From Acinetobacter baumannii (GTDB lineage Bacteria; Pseudomonadota; Gammaproteobacteria; Pseudomonadales; Moraxellaceae), in the NCBI RefSeq assembly GCF_009759685.1, contig NZ_CP046654.1, positions 2,480,001 through 2,544,000 of the forward strand: a stretch of DNA of 64,000 nt, written 5' to 3'. The translations under genes and the position numbers were made by a program. This document shows, in pieces, positions 1-11,254 of the stretch (position 1 is the first letter of the stretch; each line of letters opens with the position of its first letter). The notes beneath the pieces are model-generated. The model saw only the letters and a program-made list of their open reading frames with translations. It was not told where the DNA came from and did no database searches.

Positions 1-2882
1 ACGGTGAAACCAATATTGTCGATATTGCTGGCGCATCGGTAGAAGTCTTTCGACCAGGTGTAGATATTGTTTCAGGTGAGCCATATTTCTCGCTTGGTAC
101 CGAAATTACCACGCCGCCACTAACGGTTCAGCATCAAACTTCTGTTAATGGCCAAGTTTTACGTCCTGCTGATACACAATCTTTAGAAGGTACGAACTAC
201 CTTCATTTTGCATATCCAAACGAGATTCTTCGGGCAACGGCAAACAACACAGATTTAACCACTAAGTTTGTAAGTAATGACCGCGTAGAAATCACCAATG
301 CCTCATTCACGTTTAATGGCCAGACTTTTGATTTAAATGGTACTTATAGCGTTCTATCGGTAGCTGATGACCGTATGACGTTATCAAATCCGGCGGCCGT
401 TAATGCTAACTGGTTAAAGCTTAAAGAGTTAAATAACCAACAAACTGCAGCTTTGTCACCAAAGATCAGTTCAATAGGTGAAAAATGGATTGGTCCATTC
501 ATTCTGGACAATGTTGAACGTAGCCGGGTGCTGTGTAATTTTGTGGCCACCAATGGACTTTATACCGTTTCTTCAGGTGGGTATCAGGCCGCTGTTAATG
601 TCACGATTGAAGTTGAAGTAACACCGGTAAATGAATCTGGTGCAGCGATTGGTAATCCGATGCTGAAGCAGATCATTTTGAAAGGTTCGGCAAAGTCACG
701 TCAGACCGTTGGTGCAACACTTGATATGGTCACGTTTCAGGGGCGTTGTAGTGTCCGTGCACGCCGTTTAACTCCGACTCCGACAGTCACAACAGTTGTT
801 GATGAAGTAAAGTGGCAGGCGCTTTACGGTGCTTATCCTTTACAAAGCACAGTGTATGAACATGAAACGGTTTTTCGTGCGCGTACTTATGCAACCACTG
901 GAGCTTTATCTGTTAAGTCCCGCAAGATCAATTTTGATCTTCAGCGAATGTTGCCGACTTATAAAAACGGGGCAATGACAACAGAGCTATATCCAACGTC
1001 TAGCTTTGCTGATGCTTTGGTATCTATGGCACTCGATGACAAGATTGGCCGCCGTTCGATCGATGAGATTGATCTTGAAAACATCTATCGGACCTATAAT
1101 GATGTAGTTGATTATTTTGGTACGCCGCTAGCGGCTGAGTTCTGTACTACCATTGATGATACGAATCTATCTTTTGAAGAGCTGGTTACCAATCTTTGTG
1201 ATGCGGTGTTTTGTACTGCATATCGGCAAAACAATAAGCTCAAGCTTTATTTTGAACGGCCAACTGATAACTCGGTAATGCTGTTTAACTTCAGGAATAT
1301 CATTCCGGATAGTTACAAGCATGACCTGACCTTTGGCGTGATGGATGACTACGACGGACTGATCTATGAATACACGGATCCGACCGACGATAGCCGTATC
1401 AATATCTATTTACCGGATAAAGGAGCCAAAAACCCAAAAGAGGTGAAATCTGTTGGTGTACGAAACAAGTGGCAAGCGCATTTCAATGCATACCGGATTT
1501 GGAACAAGATGCGCTTCCAGCGCAAATCCATTACCTTTGATGCGGCACCAGAATCAGAATTACTGGTTTTACGTGACCGGATTGCTGTAGCGGATTATCG
1601 CAATGGTATTCATCAAAGCGGTGAGGTGGTACAGCAAGAAGGTTTAGTCCTCACCTTAAGCCATGATGTAGATTTCATTGCAGGCAAGAGCTATGTGATT
1701 TATCTGCAAATGGCGGATGGCACAGTGGACCTGATTCCTGTTACACCGGGTTCAGCCAAAAATAAGGTGGTTTTAGGGCGGTTGCCGAACGGGGCCTTAA
1801 AGCTAAGTCCTGATGATTTTGTAAATACCATCTATACAGTAGTTAATGATGATACTAAAGGTTCATTGCCTTATCTGGTTGCAAAAAGAGAACCGGTTGA
1901 CCAGTTCTCTAATACTATTACAGCAATTAATTACGATGAGCGCTATTACCTCAACGATAAAGACTTTATTGACGTGCCGGTTGATGATTCTCCAATTTAC
2001 ATTCGATATGACCAGCTGGATATTAATCTGGCGCGTTTATATCAGATGCAAAGAGGGGATTTGCCAACGACTGGCGAAATCAGTTTTGTAGTTGAATCTG
2101 GTGCACTAGTTTCTAGTTCGAGTTCTTATCGACCGGAAACCAGATTTGTCTATAAATTCGACTACAACTCCAGTCCGCCGAAACAGGAATTTATTGCCCC
2201 TGCAGCGACTGAACTACCCGCCATTGATACTGGTGAGTTCCCACCTGATCTGGTGGTAAATCTGACTATTAAAGGTGCTGTTGTTGGGCGTGGTGGTGAT
2301 GGCGGTTTACCTCATTTGGCATTTGGCGCATGGGAGTCCGATCCGGATTACAACTTTACTAAAACCCGACGTGATGGGTTTCAGGGAGCACCCGGTTTAT
2401 TGAACCGGCACAGCAAACTAAACCTGATTATTGATGGCGGCACTCTAGCTCGAGGTGGATCTGGTGGTGGAGCAACACCAAGCGGTATTTACACTGGGTT
2501 GTCTTATGGTGTTCAAGGTATTCCGGGTGGAGCTGGTGCACCATTTGGACGGGTCATGACAGGCCAGCCAATTTCAAGCGACTCACAAGATTGGCGCTGG
2601 TATTTTGGAAGTTACTTCAATGTCTTAAAAATTACTGATGCCGAAGCTTCGGTACCCGGAAAAGGCTACCGAACCCAAAATGACCGTTATGGATCCCCAT
2701 TATCAGGTGATGGCGGAAACTGGGGCGAACGTGGTACCAAGTCTACTAATGATGGAACATGGAACTGGAAATACCATGGCACAACTGAAGGTCAGCCGGG
2801 GCCAGGTGGACCTGCAATTGTGGGAGTTGCACCACTGACAACTCAATTGATTAATGGAGGGAAAATCTTACAAACCCTTTAA
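1..2882 (+). CDS. Phage tail tip / host specificity protein (J-like), 5' truncated by the window
   Basis: The reading frame is open from base 3, so the N-terminus lies upstream and about 959 residues are visible. The body looks like the beta-rich central tail hub or tip attachment proteins of siphophages, which contact the host surface. The last 200 residues are glycine-rich (runs such as GRGGDGG, GGSGGG and GQPGPGGP), as in the collagen-like or glycine-rich ends of phage receptor-binding proteins. Its place directly before the holin and endolysin fits the last large structural gene of a siphovirus late operon. A hairpin terminator follows. The J-like name rests on position and composition and is a family-level inference. 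Confidence 0.75.
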   Translation, partial: GETNIVDIAGASVEVFRPGVDIVSGEPYFSLGTEITTPPLTVQHQTSVNGQVLRPADTQSLEGTNYLHFAYPNEILRATANNTDLTTKFVSNDRVEITNASFTFNGQTFDLNGTYSVLSVADDRMTLSNPAAVNANWLKLKELNNQQTAALSPKISSIGEKWIGPFILDNVERSRVLCNFVATNGLYTVSSGGYQAAVNVTIEVEVTPVNESGAAIGNPMLKQIILKGSAKSRQTVGATLDMVTFQGRCSVRARRLTPTPTVTTVVDEVKWQALYGAYPLQSTVYEHETVFRARTYATTGALSVKSRKINFDLQRMLPTYKNGAMTTELYPTSSFADALVSMALDDKIGRRSIDEIDLENIYRTYNDVVDYFGTPLAAEFCTTIDDTNLSFEELVTNLCDAVFCTAYRQNNKLKLYFERPTDNSVMLFNFRNIIPDSYKHDLTFGVMDDYDGLIYEYTDPTDDSRINIYLPDKGAKNPKEVKSVGVRNKWQAHFNAYRIWNKMRFQRKSITFDAAPESELLVLRDRIAVADYRNGIHQSGEVVQQEGLVLTLSHDVDFIAGKSYVIYLQMADGTVDLIPVTPGSAKNKVVLGRLPNGALKLSPDDFVNTIYTVVNDDTKGSLPYLVAKREPVDQFSNTITAINYDERYYLNDKDFIDVPVDDSPIYIRYDQLDINLARLYQMQRGDLPTTGEISFVVESGALVSSSSSYRPETRFVYKFDYNSSPPKQEFIAPAATELPAIDTGEFPPDLVVNLTIKGAVVGRGGDGGLPHLAFGAWESDPDYNFTKTRRDGFQGAPGLLNRHSKLNLIIDGGTLARGGSGGGATPSGIYTGLSYGVQGIPGGAGAPFGRVMTGQPISSDSQDWRWYFGSYFNVLKITDAEASVPGKGYRTQNDRYGSPLSGDGGNWGERGTKSTNDGTWNWKYHGTTEGQPGPGGPAIVGVAPLTTQLINGGKILQTL

Positions 2883-2899
2883 ACCTTATAAGAACTTTG

Positions 2900-2923
2900 A
2901 GCACCCAATTCGGGTGCTTTTTT
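2900..2923 (+). terminator. Intrinsic terminator after the tail gene
   Basis: The stem GCACCC/GGGTGC with an AATTC loop is followed at once by a run of six T, 18 bases after the tail gene stop. It separates the structural operon from the lysis genes. Confidence 0.75.
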
Positions 2924-2949
2924 ATTACCTAAATTTTCTGGAGAAATTA

Positions 2950-3339
2950 ATGGAACCAGTTTCCACTAGCGGTTTTACAGCACTTTTAAAATTATATGGG
3001 ATTGCAATCATGGTGACTTTAGCAGTCGGTTTGGTTGCAGCAGTTGTATTAATGACTCGTATGCCACGCTCACCACAAGAGTGGGCAGTTGGTTTGATCT
3101 GTACGGTTGTATCAAGTTTGGCTGGCGGCTCATTCATTATTGTGAAGTGGGGACTTCATGAATGGGTTACTGATGTATGGGGGATGATTGCTCTAGGTGG
3201 GTTCTTCTTTGTTTGTGGTTTACCCGGTTGGGCTTTAGTCCGTTGGATTTTTAATTTTATAGATAAACAGGAAGGTAAAACGATCGTTGAAGTGATCAAA
3301 GAGTTTAAGAAAGCCAGAAAAGACATTGAAAACAGCTAA
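2950..3339 (+). CDS. Putative phage holin / small membrane protein of the lysis module
   Basis: This 129-residue protein has three likely membrane segments (about residues 10-35, 43-65 and 75-100) and a lysine-rich cytoplasmic tail. The reading frame opens upstream, but ATG 2950 is preferred because it is preceded by CTGGAGAA and lies after the upstream terminator. Its position just before a muramidase and its size fit a holin, which would open the inner membrane to let the endolysin reach the wall. I recognise no holin family signature by eye, so the function is inferred from context and topology. Confidence 0.65.
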   Translation: MEPVSTSGFTALLKLYGIAIMVTLAVGLVAAVVLMTRMPRSPQEWAVGLICTVVSSLAGGSFIIVKWGLHEWVTDVWGMIALGGFFFVCGLPGWALVRWIFNFIDKQEGKTIVEVIKEFKKARKDIENS

Positions 3340-3340
3340 T

Positions 3341-3362
3341 GCCGCCTTCGGGCGGTTTTTTA
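3341..3362 (+). terminator. Hairpin between holin and endolysin genes
   Basis: The stem GCCGCC / GGCGGT with a TTCG loop is followed by six T. It begins just after the holin stop codon and ends about 19 bases before the endolysin start. It may attenuate rather than stop lysis transcription. Confidence 0.65.
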
Positions 3363-3380
3363 CATCTGAAGGAAACCGAA

Positions 3381-3926
3381 ATGAACATTGAACAATATCT
3401 GGACGAGTTAATTAAGCGTGAGGGCGGGTACGTAAACAACCCAGCAGATCGAGGCGGTGAAACAAAGTACGGTATTACTGAAGCAGTAGCACGTACTAAC
3501 GGCTTTAAGGGCAACATGAAAGATTTACCGCTTGATGTGGCCAAAGCCATTTATAAAAAGCAGTATTGGACAGATCCGCGATTTGATCAAGTGAATGTAA
3601 TTAGCTCGTTAGTTGCTGAAGAGCTTTTAGATACTGGGGTAAATTGCGGTACCGGATTTGCAAAACCACTCTTACAGCGTGCTTTAAATTTGCTGAATAA
3701 CCAAGGTAAAGCAGGTTGGCCAGATTTAACAGTTGACGGAATTTATGGTCCAGCAACTCTTAATGCACTCAAAACTTATCTGGCCAAGCGTGGAAAAGAC
3801 GGCGAAAAAGTCCTGGTGCGTGTTCTTAATATCATGCAAGGGCAACGTTACATTGAAATCTGTGAACGCAATCCTAGCCAGGAACAGTTTTTCTATGGTT
3901 GGATCGCCAATCGAGTTGTTATATGA
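3381..3926 (+). CDS. Phage endolysin, GH108-type N-acetylmuramidase
   Basis: This 181-residue protein begins with a glycoside hydrolase 108 domain. The catalytic glutamate is Glu14 in the REGGYVNNPADRGGETKYGIT motif region, and a YKKQYW segment follows. The second half has the features of the type 3 peptidoglycan-binding domain usually found in this family (NLLNNQG, DGIYGPATLNAL). It cleaves the glycan strands of peptidoglycan at host lysis. There is no signal peptide, so export would depend on the holin. ATG 3381 follows GAAGGAAACCGA, a better site than the in-frame ATG at 3339, which overlaps the holin stop. Its stop overlaps the start of the next small gene (ATGA). Confidence 0.9.
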   Translation: MNIEQYLDELIKREGGYVNNPADRGGETKYGITEAVARTNGFKGNMKDLPLDVAKAIYKKQYWTDPRFDQVNVISSLVAEELLDTGVNCGTGFAKPLLQRALNLLNNQGKAGWPDLTVDGIYGPATLNALKTYLAKRGKDGEKVLVRVLNIMQGQRYIEICERNPSQEQFFYGWIANRVVI

Positions 3927-4054
3927 AAGTCTTTCATTGCAGACGATCAAAGATAGCTTTAACAATTACATTGCTGTGCATTCTATTTTCAGGATGCACA
4001 GCTCATACGATCAATAGCAATGTCAATGTCTCAATTTGCGCTAGAGCATTATAA
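3923..4054 (+). CDS. Small lipoprotein downstream of endolysin, possible Rz1-like outer-membrane spanin
   Basis: This 43-residue gene overlaps the endolysin stop by four bases (ATGA), a sign of translational coupling. The product has a short basic start, a hydrophobic stretch and a lipobox LFSGC with Cys25 as the acylation site, which leaves a mature peptide of about 19 residues. Position and topology resemble the outer-membrane spanin subunit Rz1. The mature part is not proline-rich, and I see no inner-membrane Rz partner. It could instead be an exclusion lipoprotein or a remnant. Confidence 0.5.
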   Translation: MKVFHCRRSKIALTITLLCILFSGCTAHTINSNVNVSICARAL

Positions 4055-4085
4055 AAAAAAGCCCTGAATGATCAGGGCTATTTAA
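4053..4085. terminator. Terminator closing the prophage lysis module
   Basis: The stem GCCCTGA/TCAGGGC (4061-4067 with 4072-4078) has a short loop. A run of eight A precedes it and a TATTTAAT tract follows, so it can act in both directions. Confidence 0.6.
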
Positions 4086-4365
4086 TAAACTTCAATTCAC
4101 ATACTTCTACAAAGCTCGAGTAGTCTTATGTTTGTTATTGTATAGCTTGATAATCCTCTATCTTTCATCCTAGGGTTGTGCACATACTTCTATCCTTAAA
4201 TTGTGTAATGAAATTTCTTCTGTTGTAGTTGAGAAGCTTTTCAATCTGTTAAAAGAATCCAAAAAGCATCAAATGAATAAAGAAACTACTTATTTAACTT
4301 GAATCATCATTTTCTGTTTACTAATAAATGAAAGTGCTTGGATGTATAGGGATTGTTTTTTTAAT
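4086..4365. other. AT-rich spacer between lysis module and cargo genes
   Basis: About 280 bases with no coding sequence that I can support. It ends in the regulatory site of the TonB receptor gene. The change from late phage genes to very AT-rich cargo happens here. Confidence 0.6.
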
Positions 4366-4383
4366 GTTATGTTATAATATAAC
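4366..4383 (+). promoter_or_regulatory. Zur-box-like palindrome overlapping a -10 hexamer
   Basis: The 18-bp GTTATGTTATAATATAAC is a palindrome with 8 of 9 matched pairs. It has the TGTTATAATATAAC core seen in gammaproteobacterial Zur sites. It contains a perfect TATAAT at 4373-4378 and sits 24 bases before the TonB receptor start, where bound repressor would block RNA polymerase. Zur binding is inferred from motif form. Confidence 0.65.
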
Positions 4384-4407
4384 CTTTTCTTAAAAAAGGG
4401 GGGGATT

Positions 4408-6726
4408 ATGAAACCTTTGGCAGCTTTACCGTTAATTTTTATAGCAATTCAGCAAGTGCAAGCTGAGGAGAGAATTGCAATTTTAAAGCCTCTTGTTTTT
4501 AAGGCAAATGCATTAAAGGAAAAAAATTATGTGGTGGACAAAGAAAAAGTAGAAAGTTCCAATACAATAGGTGATGCTCTTAAAAATATAACAGGTATAC
4601 AAAGTACTTCATTTGGACCCAATGCAGGTGCACCAGTTATACGTAGTTTGAGTGGAAATCGGGTTGGAGTAATTGAAAATGGAGAATTTATTAATGGAAT
4701 GAATGCATTTAGTGGAAATATTAATATACCATTCGATCCAATTTTTATAGAAAAAGTGATAGTGAACAAAAATACAGATAATATTCGTTATGGCGGAAAT
4801 GCAATAGGCGGGAGTGTTCAAATAGAATCGGGTTTAATTCCTAAAAAAATTGAAGAAAAGCCAAACAAATTAGATATTGTCTTTCGGAAAGGATTTAATG
4901 ATTTTGATGTAAAGGGGTTCAATTTTAACATCAATGATCAAAAAAACTGGTCTACAAATATAAGATATTCAGAATATGAAATTTCTTCTTATAAAATTCC
5001 AGGAAATAGTAAAGCCAAATTATGTGAAGACCAGATTTTTTCAAATTCAGGTGGGATCAATAGTGCATTAGCAGCTTCCTGTCAAAAAGATAGTAGAGTC
5101 CAACATATTTATAACAAGTCGTCACAACCATACATAGATAAATTTATGACTGAGAATCCTGATTGGGCAGATGGCGATTTTTCTTTTTATACAGATAAGC
5201 CCACATCTATATGGGGAGGAAAAACATATATAAATCCAAAAAATCCAGAGTACATACCTAATACTCCGCAAAATACAATAAAAAAGATCAATACGGATGT
5301 TACACCAAATTATTTTAAAAAATTAGGTAACAGTTATGCTCAGAATGAGAATATTGGGTTTGGAACAACATACTTTTTTGATAAAGGTTTCATTGGATTG
5401 AGTGCAGATAAGAAAAAAAGTGAATATGGTGTACCAGGATTTTCATTACAAAATCAATCTTTTGCTGATTCTTATGAAACATTACCGGTTGGTGTGAAAA
5501 TAGATCAAAATCGTTTTGTATTAAATTCCAATTTTATCCAACCAATTTCCTCTGCAGAAGAGATAAGTTTGAATTTTCAACAGCTTTCTAATAAATCTGG
5601 AGAATATGTTGGTACTGCAAAAGCTAATGAGTATAAAATTGATAATCAATTAATTGAATTAATAATGAAACAGTCATCCTTTAAGGGATTAGATGGGATA
5701 CTTGGTTTTAGCCTTAAAAATAGGAATATCGAAGGAAGTGGTACTCAGCGCTATTTACCTAATGTAAGTACTATTAGTAAAGCTATATTCTTACAAGAAG
5801 AATTAAATATCAAACAATTTACTTTAAATACGGGCTATCGTTTTGAAAGAATTGAACATGAGCTTCAAGATAATGATTTTAAACTAGCAAGAAATGCTAG
5901 TAATTCAAGAATAGAAAATAGAAAATATAATTTAAACCAATATTTTATCGGAGGAGAATATAAGGTTAATAATTTTATAAATTTAAAAGTTGATTATGGT
6001 ATTTCAGAAAGAGCACCTGAAGTGAATGAGCTCTATTCAAGTAATGTTCACTATTCTGTTATGGCACAAGAAGAAGGCGACCAGAATCTCAAACCAGAAA
6101 AATCTAAAAGTTTAGAGTTAGGTATGTTTTTGAATTGGAATAATTGGGTCATGCAACTTGTTGGGTATCAAATGGATTTTGAAAATTATATGTATTTATC
6201 TCATTCAGGTGTTGCTGTGCAAAATCGATTACCTTTAAAATACTGGAAACAGACAGACACTGACGTCAAAGGGTTTGAAATTGATTTAATTTATGATTTT
6301 AATCTAGCTCATATTGGGAATATTAAACTAGGTGGTTTAGCTGATTTTGTTAAAAATAAGGCTGTTAATCCTACAGATATAAGGTTAGCTAATGATGGAG
6401 TTTACCTACCAAATATGCCTACTAATCGTTATGGCATGTTTCTTGAGTGGAGAAATGATTCTTGGAAAGGTAAAATTTCAAGTATTTACTACGATGAGCC
6501 AAGATATCTAGGTAAGAATGTAATACAGGAAGTTCCTTTATCTGGTTACAACTTACTTGAATTTAAGATAGATAAAAAATTAAAGATTAAAAATGCTTCA
6601 TTTGATATATTTTTAAATGGTACAAATCTGCTGAACGAAGAGGCTAGACCACAAAACTCTCCTCTAAAATATATTGCCCCTCTACCAGGGCGAGCATTTC
6701 AACTGGGGATAACTATGCATATTTAG
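4408..6726 (+). CDS. TonB-dependent outer-membrane receptor, ZnuD-like (putative zinc uptake)
   Basis: The 772-residue product has a signal peptide ending near QVQA, then a plug domain (about residues 45-150: IGDALKNITGIQ, GAPVIRSLSGNRVGV, IRYGGNAIGGSVQIE), then a 22-strand-type barrel that ends in an aromatic-rich beta strand closing with GITMHI. The plug pattern and the KSEYGVPGF segment resemble the ZnuD family of zinc/haem receptors, and the Zur-type palindrome upstream points to zinc. The strong ribosome site AAAAGGGGGGG precedes ATG 4408. The gene is much more AT-rich than its neighbours and stands alone inside a prophage, which suggests separate acquisition. TonB receptor is secure; zinc as ligand is inference. 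Confidence 0.8.
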   Translation: MKPLAALPLIFIAIQQVQAEERIAILKPLVFKANALKEKNYVVDKEKVESSNTIGDALKNITGIQSTSFGPNAGAPVIRSLSGNRVGVIENGEFINGMNAFSGNINIPFDPIFIEKVIVNKNTDNIRYGGNAIGGSVQIESGLIPKKIEEKPNKLDIVFRKGFNDFDVKGFNFNINDQKNWSTNIRYSEYEISSYKIPGNSKAKLCEDQIFSNSGGINSALAASCQKDSRVQHIYNKSSQPYIDKFMTENPDWADGDFSFYTDKPTSIWGGKTYINPKNPEYIPNTPQNTIKKINTDVTPNYFKKLGNSYAQNENIGFGTTYFFDKGFIGLSADKKKSEYGVPGFSLQNQSFADSYETLPVGVKIDQNRFVLNSNFIQPISSAEEISLNFQQLSNKSGEYVGTAKANEYKIDNQLIELIMKQSSFKGLDGILGFSLKNRNIEGSGTQRYLPNVSTISKAIFLQEELNIKQFTLNTGYRFERIEHELQDNDFKLARNASNSRIENRKYNLNQYFIGGEYKVNNFINLKVDYGISERAPEVNELYSSNVHYSVMAQEEGDQNLKPEKSKSLELGMFLNWNNWVMQLVGYQMDFENYMYLSHSGVAVQNRLPLKYWKQTDTDVKGFEIDLIYDFNLAHIGNIKLGGLADFVKNKAVNPTDIRLANDGVYLPNMPTNRYGMFLEWRNDSWKGKISSIYYDEPRYLGKNVIQEVPLSGYNLLEFKIDKKLKIKNASFDIFLNGTNLLNEEARPQNSPLKYIAPLPGRAFQLGITMHI

Positions 6727-6788
6727 GTTGCTAAAGATATAAAGTTAGTTCTTATCTCCTGTCTTCAAATTTAGTAATAAAAATATAG

Positions 6789-6824
6789 TCTTAAAGCCGA
6801 ATAATTAATCGGTTTTAAGATTTT
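6789..6824 (+). terminator. Terminator after the TonB receptor gene
   Basis: The stem TCTTAAAGCCGA / TCGGTTTTAAGA is followed by TTTTA. It insulates the receptor gene from eptA, so the two cargo genes form separate transcription units. Confidence 0.6.
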
Positions 6825-6943
6825 AAAATAATCAATTATAAAGTTTAAAATTTTTTATTTATAAAATGTGTTCAAATAATGAACTGATTTTTTAGCTCAA
6901 GGAGCCATCGTCATATAAATAAAGAATATTACAAAGGTTCTTT

Positions 6944-7007: not shown

Positions 7008-8654
7008 ATGGCACTTAATGTTTTTAAATTCAAAAAAATATGCAAGGATGTTACACTATTAAATTTTAATTTGCTTTTATCTATCTGGCTAGGTTTATTT
7101 CTGAATATAGGTTTTTTTAAAAAAATCCATCAACTTACACCTTATAATGGTATTAAGTCAGTTCTTTTCTTAGGGGCGACATTAGTTATTTTAATAGCGG
7201 CATATAATTTAATTTTTCAATTAATAAATTGGAAATGGACTGCCAAAATCTTTGCAATTTTATTGATATTTATTGGTGGCTTTAGCTCTTATTTTGTAAA
7301 CACATTGGGTGTCATTATTTCACCCGACCAAATTCAAAATATGGTGCAGACCGATGTTTCGGAATTTACCGATCTAATCTCTTTACGCTTTGTTTTATGG
7401 ACAGTTTTTTTTGTTATTTTGCCCATTTTTTTAATTACTCAAGTTAAATTTAAACAAGAAAAAGCATCACGGTTGTTATTGAAGAAAGTATTCTCACTGG
7501 TAGCTTCATTTGCAGTGGTCGGTGTTTTACTTTTTACTTACTATGTCGATTTCGCTGCAATATTTCGTGAGCATCGTGATTTAAAAGGGATGATTTCACC
7601 GCAAAATAGTATTTCATCGCTTATGTCTTACTATCATAAGAAGGCTCCGAAGAAAAATCTGCCTCTTGTGATATATGGACAAGATGCTCATCAAGTTCAG
7701 CAAGTACAAAAGAACCTCCCTAAGTTAATGATACTTGTTGTAGGTGAAACGGCACGTGCCGAAAGTTTCTCTCTAAATGGGTATGCAAAAAATACGAATC
7801 CGGAGCTTTCTAAACAAGATATTTTCAACTTTTCGCAAGTGAGCTCATGCGGTACGGCGACAGCTGTTTCTGTGCCATGTATGTTCTCGGGTATGCCACG
7901 TGTAGATTATGATGAGCAATTAGCTAGTCACCGCGAAGGTTTATTAGATATTGCAAAACGTGCGGGTTACCAAGTGACTTGGATTGATAATAACTCGGGT
8001 TGTAAAGGTGCATGTGATCGCGTTGAACAATACCAGATTCCAGAAAACTTAAAGAAAAAATGGTGTAAAGATGGCGAATGTTATGATGACATTCTCATTG
8101 ACAGCTTAAAGCAGTATTTGGCTACTATTGCCAAAGATGATGATCGTCCGCGTTTGATTGTTCTGCATCAAGTGGGTAGTCATGGACCTGCATATTACAA
8201 GCGTGCACCTGAGGCATATCAACCTTTTAAACCGACTTGTGATACTAATGCGATACAGGGCTGTTCGCAAACTGAATTGCTAAATAGTTATGATAATACA
8301 ATTGTATATACAGACCATGTATTAAGCCAAATGATTAATACTCTAAAAGAAATATCAAAGTATCAGACAGGTTTATGGTATTTATCTGATCATGGCGAAT
8401 CAACCGGAGAACATGGTTTATATTTACATGGTTCACCTTATGCAATCGCACCGAGCCAACAAACACATGTACCAATGATTATGTGGTTCTCTGAAAGTTG
8501 GAAACAACATAATCTTGCTCAAGTGAATTGTTTAAGCCAACAAACTAAACAAAAGTTAAGTCAGGATAATTTATTCCCAAGTTTGTTAAGTTTGCTGGAT
8601 GTAAAAACTCAGGTAGTAAATAACAAACTTGATATGTTGAGCCAATGTAAATAA
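7008..8654 (+). CDS. eptA: Lipid A phosphoethanolamine transferase, EptA/PmrC family
   Basis: The 548-residue protein has about five N-terminal membrane segments (residues 20-190) and a periplasmic alkaline-phosphatase-like domain. Visible motifs are VVGETARAESFSLNGY (metal-binding Glu near 245), SSCGTATAVSVPCMFS (the acceptor Thr near 282), paired cysteines typical of the family, and SDHGESTGEHGLYLHG near 460. It moves phosphoethanolamine from phosphatidylethanolamine to lipid A and so lowers surface charge. Members of this family cause polymyxin resistance in Acinetobacter when overexpressed. The gene lies in prophage cargo between terminators and with a PmrA-like box upstream. The core pmrC of the pmrCAB operon would be elsewhere; no pmrA or pmrB is adjacent. 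Confidence 0.92.
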   Translation: MALNVFKFKKICKDVTLLNFNLLLSIWLGLFLNIGFFKKIHQLTPYNGIKSVLFLGATLVILIAAYNLIFQLINWKWTAKIFAILLIFIGGFSSYFVNTLGVIISPDQIQNMVQTDVSEFTDLISLRFVLWTVFFVILPIFLITQVKFKQEKASRLLLKKVFSLVASFAVVGVLLFTYYVDFAAIFREHRDLKGMISPQNSISSLMSYYHKKAPKKNLPLVIYGQDAHQVQQVQKNLPKLMILVVGETARAESFSLNGYAKNTNPELSKQDIFNFSQVSSCGTATAVSVPCMFSGMPRVDYDEQLASHREGLLDIAKRAGYQVTWIDNNSGCKGACDRVEQYQIPENLKKKWCKDGECYDDILIDSLKQYLATIAKDDDRPRLIVLHQVGSHGPAYYKRAPEAYQPFKPTCDTNAIQGCSQTELLNSYDNTIVYTDHVLSQMINTLKEISKYQTGLWYLSDHGESTGEHGLYLHGSPYAIAPSQQTHVPMIMWFSESWKQHNLAQVNCLSQQTKQKLSQDNLFPSLLSLLDVKTQVVNNKLDMLSQCK

Positions 8655-8849: not shown

Positions 8850-8903
8850 ACAAAGTAACCTCTTTATGATTTTCGAAATTACTTTTCCATCATAACTAAT
8901 ATA

Positions 8904-8951
8904 AATAAAAAGAGGGTAAATAATAGACTGTAGACGCTATTATTCACCCTC
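8904..8951 (-). terminator. Terminator of the CC0125-type lipoprotein gene
   Basis: Read on the minus strand, a 15-bp near-perfect stem (GAGGGTGAATAATAG with CTATTATTTACCCTC) is followed by TTTTTATTT. It starts 13 bases after the lipoprotein stop. Confidence 0.75.
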
Positions 8952-8964
8952 ATGGTATATATCT

Positions 8965-9453
8965 TTAACGCCAGCTATTCGGAACTTTGAATTTACCTGT
9001 AGGCATTGGAGAACCCAGAACATACTTAACGTTGTAAATTAAACCAGGCAAAACAGTGTTTGGCTTTTCATTAAAGCAAACATAGGTATTGTTTCTGGAT
9101 GGTTTAATTAACTTATATTGTGTACCAGCACTTGAGACATAATAGACACCATTTGGGGTAGTCTTAAGGCCAGCATCAACTTTAGAAATATTTTGATTGT
9201 AACTCTGGCTTGTATTGTTAATAGCTGAGAAATAACTACACCCTAGCGATTTAGATACTTCAGCAGCTTTACGTAATGCGTACTGGTTTGCTATCGATTT
9301 ATGGGTATATCCGTTTACAGATGCGCGTACTTGAAAGACATTATCATCAATAATAGTGGCTTCAACGCCACCAGAAGCCCCCATTTCTTGATAAGGTGTA
9401 GTACAGGCTTGTAAACCAATTGTTGCTAAAGCAGCTAAAAATATCTTTTTCAT
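8965..9453 (-). CDS. Small secreted lipoprotein, CC0125/CC1285-type
   Basis: This 162-residue protein has a lipoprotein signal peptide with lipobox LQAC (Cys17). The mature part carries a GYTHKSIANQYALRKAAEVSKSLGCSYF segment like that of the CC0125/CC1285 family, in which short AAE/C-type motifs are kept. The function is unknown; lipidation would put it in the outer or inner membrane facing the periplasm. It is transcribed in the same direction as the integrase and lies 89 bases after it, with its own terminator. Such genes are common lysogenic cargo, but no role is supported here. Confidence 0.65.
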   Translation of the reverse strand: MKKIFLAALATIGLQACTTPYQEMGASGGVEATIIDDNVFQVRASVNGYTHKSIANQYALRKAAEVSKSLGCSYFSAINNTSQSYNQNISKVDAGLKTTPNGVYYVSSAGTQYKLIKPSRNNTYVCFNEKPNTVLPGLIYNVKYVLGSPMPTGKFKVPNSWR

Positions 9454-9542
9454 AATTTATATAAAGTGATAAATGCGTCACATTAATTTTAACTATTTAG
9501 AAGAATTTTTCAATTACTTAAGGATTTCTTAAAACTTGAGTT

Positions 9543-10916
9543 CTAAAAATCTAGAATTTGGCCTGCCATTTTAAAGTTATCTAACACTTGAATGTGGTGG
9601 TTAATTAATTCTTGAGCCTGATTTCTCGATTCATTTTTCTCGAAATATAAGCGACTTTTGATTAATGCTTTTACTGGTTCAGAAATAATCACGTCTTCAA
9701 TCATATTCATAGCTTTCTTTAAATCATCGAAAGAAACTTGAATATATCCATCAGTCACATCGTTATCATCATCGTCAGTGGTATGGTTAATTAGCCTTTT
9801 AATCGTATAGCTTCCTATGGCCAAGCTGTTCGCGATAGTGCCAAAGGTGCGGCGTAAATCATGGAACGTAAATTCGATACCAGAATTCTCAGTTACTTTG
9901 TCACGTGCTGCTCGGCGGTCTGAAATATGGGAAACACCATTTCTATCGGTAAAGACATATTTGTTATCACCGGCACGTTTTTTTCGTTCACGCATAATGT
10001 GCCAAAGGGTATCACCCATAGGTAGCAAAAGATCCTCATGGTTTTTCGTATTAATAATTTTGATGGTACCAAATTGAAGATCTACATTTTTCCATTCAAC
10101 AGATTCTGCTTCACTACGTCTAAAACCAGTTAGAGCAAGTAAGAATAAAAAGTCTTGGTTTGTGTACGCTCTAAAATCGTTATTTTGTTCACCCATCCAA
10201 TAAGTAGTGGCCACAGCCAATGCCCATGCTTCGCGCTGATCTGCACGAACATGGCCTTTTCTACGTTTAATTTTATTGAAAGCTTTTTCTTCTTTAACGA
10301 TAACAACCGGGTTTTTTATATTTAGAATTTTATTCCCGGACTCATCCTTATACCTGCTAATCGTATGGTTAAAGAGAGCATGTAAAAATTTTGATGCAAG
10401 ATTAGCTCGGGAAGGGCTTGCTTTCGAAAGCTTCAGATGACGATCAATAATCATTGCACTGGTGATTTGGTCAAGTTTTAAATCTTTCCAATCACTAAAG
10501 TAGTTTTCTATGCATCCGTCATAGGCAATTAAAGATGTTTCCGCCAGCTTTTTACGCAATTTATAGTATTGGTAAGCTTCACTAAGGGTAGGGACTAGCT
10601 TTTGTAAGGCATCATTTTGAATTGCTGAAGCTCGTAAATCACGCTTTTGCTTAACTGGATCTACACCTTCATCCATCAAGATAAGAAGCCGTTTAGCTTC
10701 AGTTCTGGCTTGTTCTAATGTATAGACGCCATGTTTTCCAATAACTTTACGTTTAGACTTGCCATTAGGCATTTTCTTTTCAGCAAAATAGCTTTTAGTT
10801 TTGCCCACACATAAGCCAAATCCTATAGTTACTGTATCTCTGTAAAAGATTTGTTTCTCTTCAGACAAAGGAATAGAGTCTATTACCGATTTAGTAAATT
10901 TAATGTGTTGAGCCAT
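9543..10916 (-). CDS. int: Prophage tyrosine integrase
   Basis: This 457-residue site-specific recombinase has an N-terminal DUF4102-like arm-binding domain (FTKSVIDSIP, GKHGVYTLEQARTEAK), a SAM-like core-binding domain (about 110-220), and a C-terminal catalytic domain. The catalytic residues are visible: Arg in LTGFRRSEAE, His-x-x-Arg in FHDLRRTFGT, His in LINHTTDDD and Tyr in DGYIQVS. The frame extends 15 codons upstream, but MAQHIKF at 10916 matches the family start. It integrates and, with an excisionase, excises the prophage. It lies next to the 6S RNA gene, with repeated motifs between, so the attachment site is probably there. Confidence 0.92.
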   Translation of the reverse strand: MAQHIKFTKSVIDSIPLSEEKQIFYRDTVTIGFGLCVGKTKSYFAEKKMPNGKSKRKVIGKHGVYTLEQARTEAKRLLILMDEGVDPVKQKRDLRASAIQNDALQKLVPTLSEAYQYYKLRKKLAETSLIAYDGCIENYFSDWKDLKLDQITSAMIIDRHLKLSKASPSRANLASKFLHALFNHTISRYKDESGNKILNIKNPVVIVKEEKAFNKIKRRKGHVRADQREAWALAVATTYWMGEQNNDFRAYTNQDFLFLLALTGFRRSEAESVEWKNVDLQFGTIKIINTKNHEDLLLPMGDTLWHIMRERKKRAGDNKYVFTDRNGVSHISDRRAARDKVTENSGIEFTFHDLRRTFGTIANSLAIGSYTIKRLINHTTDDDDNDVTDGYIQVSFDDLKKAMNMIEDVIISEPVKALIKSRLYFEKNESRNQAQELINHHIQVLDNFKMAGQILDF

Positions 10917-10925
10917 CTTTAAATT

Positions 10926-11007
10926 AAGCAATACAAAGCAATACCTAACGATACAATACAATAATTGTGAAGTCTATTAAGAGTCTATTTTGAAGGTTTG
11001 GTCTATT
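10926..11007. repeat. Short direct repeats between integrase and 6S RNA, candidate integrase arm sites
   Basis: Two families of repeats are visible. AAGCAATAC occurs twice in tandem at about 10926-10945, followed by CGATACAATAC. GTCTATT occurs three times (10972, 10983 and 11001). Clustered short direct repeats next to an integrase gene are typical of arm-type binding sites of attP. The core site cannot be fixed without the left end of the prophage. Confidence 0.45.
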
Positions 11008-11065
11008 AAAAAAGAGAGTTTTAAGTAGGGGATTTTGTTTTAAGTTATTGTTATCTATTAAAAAT

Positions 11066-11248
11066 AAATGCTCCGAAGATGCCGCTGCATGTCGTTACCC
11101 TTGAACCCTAAAGTTCAAGGTGGAGGTGACGCATACTTGCTGGGTTTCCTACTCGGGGTAGGCATACGCTCTAAATATGCAGAACACCATCCTAAAGAGA
11201 TGATATCGGCTCAGGGGAATCAGACCGGCTGGCGAACATCCCAGAGAC
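11066..11248 (-). ncRNA. ssrS: 6S RNA
   Basis: Read on the minus strand, the segment starts near CTCTGGGATGTTCGCC, contains CCCCTGAGCCGATAT and ACCTTGAAC...GTTCAAGGGTAAC, and ends near GCGGCATCTTCGGAGC. These match the conserved blocks of gammaproteobacterial 6S RNA, and the two ends pair to form its closing stem around an open central bubble. 6S RNA mimics an open promoter and sequesters the sigma70 RNA polymerase in stationary phase. It follows zapA on the same strand, as in other gammaproteobacteria. The usual downstream 5-formyltetrahydrofolate cyclo-ligase gene is displaced by the prophage. End points are approximate. Confidence 0.92.
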
Positions 11249-11254
11249 AGCTTT

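What the first reader, a model, noticed from the sequence alone, without database searches (positions are those of the whole stretch)
4366..6726. Prophage carries a TonB receptor under a Zur-type operator
The sequence shows an 18-bp near-perfect palindrome with the core of Zur boxes directly over a TATAAT, then a strong ribosome site and a ZnuD-like receptor, all between phage lysis genes and the integrase. Zur control of zinc receptors is established. A phage cargo gene wired to the host zinc regulator would let a lysogen gain zinc uptake under host starvation, for example against calprotectin. It could also be a phage receptor trade-off or a route for colicin-like toxins.
Basis: partly seen in the sequence, partly recalled or inferred. 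Interest (0 to 1): 0.75.

Follow-up and report, generated by a model that had tools for sequence, protein, structure and literature searches.

The report
Phage-carried zinc-type receptor, host-switched
A bacterial virus sitting in an Acinetobacter chromosome carries an outer-membrane receptor resembling zinc-uptake receptors, behind a DNA site that matches the bacterium's own zinc-starvation switch, so an infected cell probably gains an extra uptake route when zinc is scarce.

Summary
A 772-aa TonB-dependent receptor (4408-6726) lies in a 52.7-kb prophage of an A. baumannii-complex genome, behind a strong Zur-type operator over an extended -10. The prophage is bounded by a 60-bp att repeat at the 3' end of the 6S RNA gene. 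The receptor is identical to that of PhiAb1656-2, a mitomycin-induced, plaque-forming phage whose record holds the attP junction. The operator is a nested double dyad. It scores like seven other sites of the same genome, and nothing else in the window comes near. Of 29 related Acinetobacter receptors, 28 have such a box close upstream, so gene and operator travel together. A second, different phage contig carries a family member with the box, most simply a second capture. The nearest solved structure is ZnuD, but identity is low, and of ZnuD's four zinc ligands two are kept (E399, H548) while one is Asn and one Ile: a ZnuD-like receptor of its own clade, neither ZnuD1 nor plasmid ZnuD2. Zur binding, the ligand and any benefit are inferred, not shown. 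Best reading: a moron giving zinc-starvation-induced uptake, beside a second cargo gene, eptA.

The parts
375..2882 (+). TipJ/J-type tail gene of the prophage
   Evidence: NCBIfam NF040662 464 bits; PHROG tail families
3339..3926 (+). endolysin (N-acetylmuramidase type)
   Evidence: PF05838 and PF09374; phrog_315
4060..4079 (.). hairpin between lysis genes and receptor
   Evidence: -13.9 kcal/mol, z -4.4; listed as terminator-like on the - strand only
4365..4384 (.). nested double Zur-type operator: dyads 4365-4379 (2 mismatches) and 4370-4384 (1 mismatch)
4370..4378 (+). extended -10 TGTTATAAT inside the operator
   Evidence: read; no -35 match
4398..4404 (+). G-rich ribosome site
4408..6726 (+). 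TonB-dependent receptor, ZnuD-like, 772 aa
   Evidence: phrog_5687 full length
6787..6822 (.). hairpin after the receptor gene
   Evidence: -16.6 kcal/mol for 6770-6830, z -5.2; not listed by the terminator scan
7008..8654 (+). eptA, phosphoethanolamine-lipid A transferase, second cargo gene
   Evidence: NF028537 728 bits, above its cut-off of 500
8965..9453 (-). CC0125-type lipoprotein gene
   Evidence: NF047637 50.1 bits, cut-off 40
9543..10961 (-). tyrosine integrase
   Evidence: PF00589 and PF13356; phrog_1
11058..11117 (.). attR, 60 bp; the other copy (attL) is at genome 2438390, outside the window
11066..11250 (-). 6S RNA gene, whose 3' end is the integration site
   Evidence: Rfam RF00013, 113.7 bits

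Best explanation
The receptor is a moron (independent cargo gene) of a temperate Vieuvirus-type phage. Shown by sequence: it sits in a prophage that excises in a sister strain, behind its own operator and -10, between hairpins, and belongs to a receptor clade that in Acinetobacter nearly always carries a Zur-type box. Inferred: when zinc is plentiful, host Zur with zinc covers the nested operator over the -10 and shuts the gene. When zinc is scarce Zur leaves, the receptor is made, and a host TonB-ExbB-ExbD system (one is itself predicted to be under Zur in A. baumannii) drives import of zinc or a zinc complex into the periplasm, where ZnuABC takes over. The lysogen thus gains a further zinc-starvation receptor beside chromosomal ZnuD1.
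For: Operator strength; box in 28 of 29 Acinetobacter relatives and two dyads 5 bp apart in 26 of the 28 of them examined for it, at up to three mismatches each; same core in the window and 11 other copies read; zur and znuA under a like box in the own genome; Zur binds the znuA site, 14 of 15 core bases the same, in the presence of zinc, and znuD1, znuD2 and tonB1 rise in TPEN (PMC3516566, passages); ZnuD best by sequence and fold; E399 and H548 kept; inducible identical phage; not found in relatives with the same lysis genes; dN 0.160 against dS 1.143 to the G150 copy.
Against: No expression, binding or uptake data. Zinc ligand site half changed (N104, I105) and no His-rich capture loop. Curated ZnuD cut-off not met. 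The loose pattern is not enriched genome-wide. One of the seven strong sites used for the matrix lies between convergent genes, not in a promoter. The model is of middling quality (mean pLDDT 68.9).
Confidence: 0.68

Rival explanations
1. Zur-controlled, but the ligand is not zinc itself: haem, an organic metal chelate or another metal, taken up as part of the zinc-starvation response.
For: The next relatives are haem receptors (PhuR, ShuA) and the copper receptor OprC. H548 sits in the ERAP...H...NQNL stretch that recalls the FRAP/NPNL motif of haem receptors (motif recalled; residues). H100 of ZnuD is Ile here. One relative, L085, lies next to HphA and Slam haem-uptake genes.
Against: ZnuD outranks the haem and copper receptors by sequence and fold; ZnuD itself was once taken for a haem receptor (PMC4557270, passages); the box is of the zinc regulator, not Fur.
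Confidence: 0.2
2. A passenger of no present use: captured by chance and redundant with ZnuD1.
For: Low G+C, recent-cargo look; ZnuD1 is present in the genome.
Against: dN well below dS; reading frame whole in the window, Ab1656-2, L029 and L164 while the neighbouring eptA of Ab1656-2 is split by an insertion sequence; in L164 the receptor differs at 4 of 2316 bases though endolysin and tail gene are only 82% and 89% alike, so the cargo moved between backbones lately.
Confidence: 0.08
3. The receptor serves phage warfare: it alters entry of other phages or toxins, or competes for TonB.
For: Phages do carry surface-changing genes (general knowledge); the neighbour eptA changes the cell surface too.
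Against: Regulation by a zinc box and presence of the clade on chromosomes beside host-type genes point to nutrition; no data on entry.
Confidence: 0.04

Closest known systems
ZnuD (Neisseria meningitidis; A. baumannii ZnuD1)
   Same: TonB plug and barrel, Zur-type control, two of four zinc ligands; nearest solved structure
   Different: 19-30% identity to ZnuD1 in pieces; N104 and I105 in place of Asp and His; no His-rich loops; curated cut-off not met
ZnuD2 on A. baumannii plasmids (A1S_3475)
   Same: Mobile, Zur-boxed, TonB-dependent receptor of A. baumannii (PMC3516566, passages)
   Different: Plasmid, 40% to ZnuD1; only 25% over 158 aa to the window receptor for the one open piece compared; znuD2 primers do not match the window
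Zur-regulated genes on Vibrio cholerae island VSP-II
   Same: Mobile-element cargo under the host zinc regulator (PMC12409362, passages)
   Different: Genomic island, not an infectious phage; hydrolase and chemotaxis genes, not a receptor
Phage toxin genes under host iron regulators (diphtheria toxin/DtxR, Shiga toxin 1/Fur; recalled, no call)
   Same: Phage cargo wired to a host metal repressor
   Different: Toxins and iron; here an uptake-type receptor and zinc
A. baumannii prophage survey (PMC6193963, passages)
   Same: Lists a TonB-dependent receptor and phosphoethanolamine transferases among prophage genes
   Different: Receptor read there as a siderophore function; the word zinc does not occur in its main text

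Membership tests
ZnuD zinc receptor family | TonB plug and beta-barrel | tested here: met
   PF07715 and PF00593 above cut-off
ZnuD zinc receptor family | Curated NCBIfam ZnuD model above its cut-off | tested here: not met
   134.2 bits against 950
ZnuD zinc receptor family | Four zinc ligands D99, H100, E340, H499 | tested here: not met
   N104, I105, E399, H548; ligands from PMC4557270
ZnuD zinc receptor family | His/Asp-rich extracellular clusters | tested here: not met
   no such cluster in the aligned loop region
ZnuD zinc receptor family | ZnuD fold as nearest structure | tested here: met
   Foldseek ranks 1-4 are ZnuD; mean pLDDT 68.9
ZnuD zinc receptor family | Transport of zinc | not testable with these tools
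   needs uptake or growth assays
Zur regulon of A. baumannii | Zur-box match at the promoter | tested here: met
   box over the -10
Zur regulon of A. baumannii | Zur binding and derepression without zinc | not testable with these tools
   shown for znuA and other genes in PMC3516566, not for this gene
Phage moron / lysogenic-conversion gene | Inside a phage genome able to excise and infect | tested here: met
   identical receptor in Ab1656-2 with attP in its record; plaques (PMC8473069)
Phage moron / lysogenic-conversion gene | Missing from close phage relatives, deviating composition | tested here: met
   1 of 55 records sharing the tail-lysis stretch has it; 31.0% against 38.1% G+C
Phage moron / lysogenic-conversion gene | Own promoter and terminators | tested here: inconclusive
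   extended -10 and hairpins; consensus scans list no promoter and no + strand terminator at these places
Phage moron / lysogenic-conversion gene | Changes the phenotype of the lysogen | not testable with these tools
   needs experiments

The most novel reading that the evidence does not exclude
A phage-borne zinc module: the prophage pairs a Zur-derepressed zinc receptor with EptA, an enzyme whose periplasmic domain needs zinc (recalled), so that lysogens facing zinc withholding both regain zinc and keep a zinc-dependent envelope enzyme at work; different phages have taken up Zur-boxed receptors more than once because zinc scarcity is where lysogens gain most.
Probability: 0.12. Interest if true: 0.8.

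Novelty: new variant of a known kind. Interest (0 to 1): 0.52.

Why it matters
If true, an infectious temperate phage spreads a host-regulated metal-acquisition gene among A. baumannii strains, making lysogeny part of the answer to zinc withholding by the host. It also points to a Zur-boxed receptor clade in Acinetobacter and Stenotrophomonas that annotation leaves as plain 'TonB-dependent receptor' and PHROGs as 'unknown function'. Ten searches of the held library listed no paper whose title or shown abstract describes a phage-borne Zur-controlled receptor; I did not open most of the papers listed, and subscription journals are mostly not held.

Tried and rejected
Rejected: that the receptor is the known ZnuD2 (primers do not match; low identity). 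Rejected: that it is a ZnuD ortholog by the curated definition. Tried: counting loose pattern matches genome-wide, uninformative (control higher). Tried: Janthinobacterium/Duganella loci for the box, 0 of 15 at up to three mismatches; a different palindrome near TGCAATANNATTGCA turned up there at 0-3 mismatches, not followed. L161 (Stenotrophomonas-type receptor beside an integrase) could not be placed inside or outside its phage: contig cut, no tRNA found. Left out of the box tallies: L142-L145 (distant; scanned, best 3-6 mismatches), L146-L152 (distant, not scanned) and L161 (start cut off). Paper PMC11481511 was searched for five terms with no hit. Mortensen 2014 on Zur is not held.

Full report
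What is there. The window starts inside a prophage. In order it holds a TipJ-type tail gene, lysis genes with an endolysin (3339-3926), a 772-aa TonB-dependent receptor (4408-6726), a phosphoethanolamine transferase gene, eptA (7008-8654), a lipoprotein gene and a tyrosine integrase (9543-10961). A 60-bp exact repeat lies at window 11058-11117 and at genome 2438390 and bounds 52,728 bp, both copies included. The repeat covers the 3' end of the 6S RNA gene (11066-11250). The host stretch 12900-18400 matches four A. baumannii records at 95.4-97.7%.

The phage is real. The receptor protein and the DNA of the tail-lysis stretch (1-4100) and integrase stretch (8900-11000) are 100% identical to Acinetobacter phage Ab1656-2. 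That record holds right arm, one att copy and left arm in one piece (attP), while CP040048 holds the integrated right junction. The paper on it (PMC8473069, passages) reports induction by mitomycin C and plaques on ATCC 17978. IMG/VR gave eight loci with the identical receptor, one cut at a contig end. The receptor's 90% protein cluster counts 1118 member sequences.

It is cargo. Of 55 phage records sharing the tail-lysis stretch, only Ab1656-2 has this receptor; the three other phage records with any match are 21-29% identical. I looked at five of the other 54. In H13, H17 and H20 the endolysin is followed by short or other genes and then an integrase; in H27 by a short gene and an unnamed gene of the size of H13's integrase; in H28 the endolysin is another. 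None shows a receptor. The receptor has 31.0% G+C against 38.1% for the prophage and 44.9% for the tail gene. Strong hairpins lie before and after it, but the scan lists only the first, and on the minus strand, so insulation from the late genes is likely, not shown.

The operator. TGTTATAATATAACC (4370-4384) overlaps a second dyad (4365-4379); both cover an extended -10. In the own genome the strict pattern has eight places at up to one mismatch, this one included. By inspection six of the other seven lie just upstream of genes that read as znuD1, znuA/zur, zigA, its neighbour, a second L31 gene and a short ORF before an ABC-transporter gene, which fits the predicted Zur regulon of Hood 2012 (PMC3516566, passages); the seventh lies between the convergent ends of lpxC and a neighbour. 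A matrix from those seven gives 23.2 for the window site; their left-out range is 17.4-26.7 and the best of 100 shuffled windows 19.7. At up to two mismatches the pattern is rarer than its reversed control (18 against 40 per strand), so weak matches mean nothing here. In Hood 2012 Zur binds the znuA site, which shares 14 of 15 core bases, in the presence of zinc.

The family. Of 175 Acinetobacter genomes 30 carry a relative at E 1e-30 or better, own included. Of the 29 others, 28 have a box at up to two mismatches close upstream; the exception, L058, is the most distant at 41%. Of the 28 examined for it (L030-L057), 26 have two dyads 5 bp apart at up to three mismatches each. Among named genomes, 21 of 21 Acinetobacter loci have a box at up to two mismatches (many are the same genomes as above, so not independent) and 20 of 24 Stenotrophomonas loci (one titled [Pseudomonas] hibiscicola) at up to three; three of the four misses have less than 180 bases upstream held. 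None of 15 Janthinobacterium/Duganella loci has it. So the box is an old property of the clade in Acinetobacter, and the phage most simply took gene and operator together.

A second phage. Virus contig L160 (34.5 kb) carries a 57% identical receptor about 3 kb downstream of tail, holin and lysozyme-type genes, with a box at one mismatch and an antirepressor gene beyond it. No integrase was found in that contig. On the tree L160 pairs with an A. radioresistens protein, and the window copy falls in a fully supported group of five with A. pittii and A. calcoaceticus proteins, which is most simply two captures. The nearest relative (G150, 73%) lies beside phage-type genes too. Relatives in L063 and L065 have host-type neighbours (AlkZ-like, fumarase, acyl-CoA dehydrogenase), though some neighbours match PHROGs of unknown function. 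In the sibling prophage L164 the receptor differs at 4 of 2316 bases, while endolysin and tail gene are 82% and 89% alike by ungapped comparison, so the cargo has moved between phage backbones.

What the receptor does. ZnuD is the best solved relative by sequence and takes Foldseek ranks 1-4, followed by PhuR, OprC and ShuA; the model is middling (mean pLDDT 68.9). ZnuD's zinc ligands D99, H100, E340 and H499 (PMC4557270, passages) fall on N104, I105, E399 and H548. E399 and H548 are invariant in the 25 aligned sequences. The His-rich clusters are missing. I place it near ZnuD in function but outside the family as defined. Zinc or a zinc complex is the likeliest ligand because of the regulation; haem or another complex remains open.

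The neighbour. A published eptA primer matches 7158-7177, and the same paper notes eptA flanked by a phage integrase (PMC10655397, passages, read). It is split by an insertion sequence in Ab1656-2. EptA is a zinc enzyme (recalled), the basis of the bold reading.

Verdict. Observation confirmed; interpretation partly supported. Precedents are plasmid znuD2, which with znuD supports growth in zinc-poor medium (double mutant, PMC12912691, passages), and Zur-regulated genes on V. cholerae VSP-II (PMC12409362, passages); iron-regulated phage toxins are recalled. I found no description of a receptor under a host zinc operator on an infectious phage in the ten searches made of the held library.

Noticed in passing
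window 4392-4404 (A6 G7 before the start codon): The A-run and G-run at the ribosome site vary among the 12 copies read: A6-A8 and G6-G7. Slippage that tunes translation, or sequencing error.
   Followed up: partly
window 7008-8654; L028 22601-25436: eptA of the colistin literature is a gene of this same prophage; in Ab1656-2 it is split by an insertion sequence.
   Followed up: partly
L164 10710-12590: In the sibling prophage a transposase ORF lies next to a cut-short integrase ORF (326 aa against 472 aa), which may have locked that prophage in place.
   Followed up: no
L165 (NZ_CP049364, labelled ATCC 17978 plasmid pAB1, 21.8 kb): The record is a piece of this phage running from the receptor through the integrase and att into the left arm, so it looks like excised phage DNA filed as a plasmid.
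   Followed up: partly
L009 1501-1515 (genome 1159173-1159187): A strong Zur-type box lies between the convergent ends of lpxC and a neighbour, with no gene start near.
   Followed up: no
L107, L116-L118, L120, L121, L124-L129, L135-L137: Janthinobacterium/Duganella relatives lack the box but have a palindrome near TGCAATANNATTGCA upstream at 0-3 mismatches, perhaps the local zinc box.
   Followed up: partly
L085 5145-10262: A relative in a record named A. baumannii ACIN00150 sits just after HphA (hemophilin) and Slam genes, a hint at haem.
   Followed up: no
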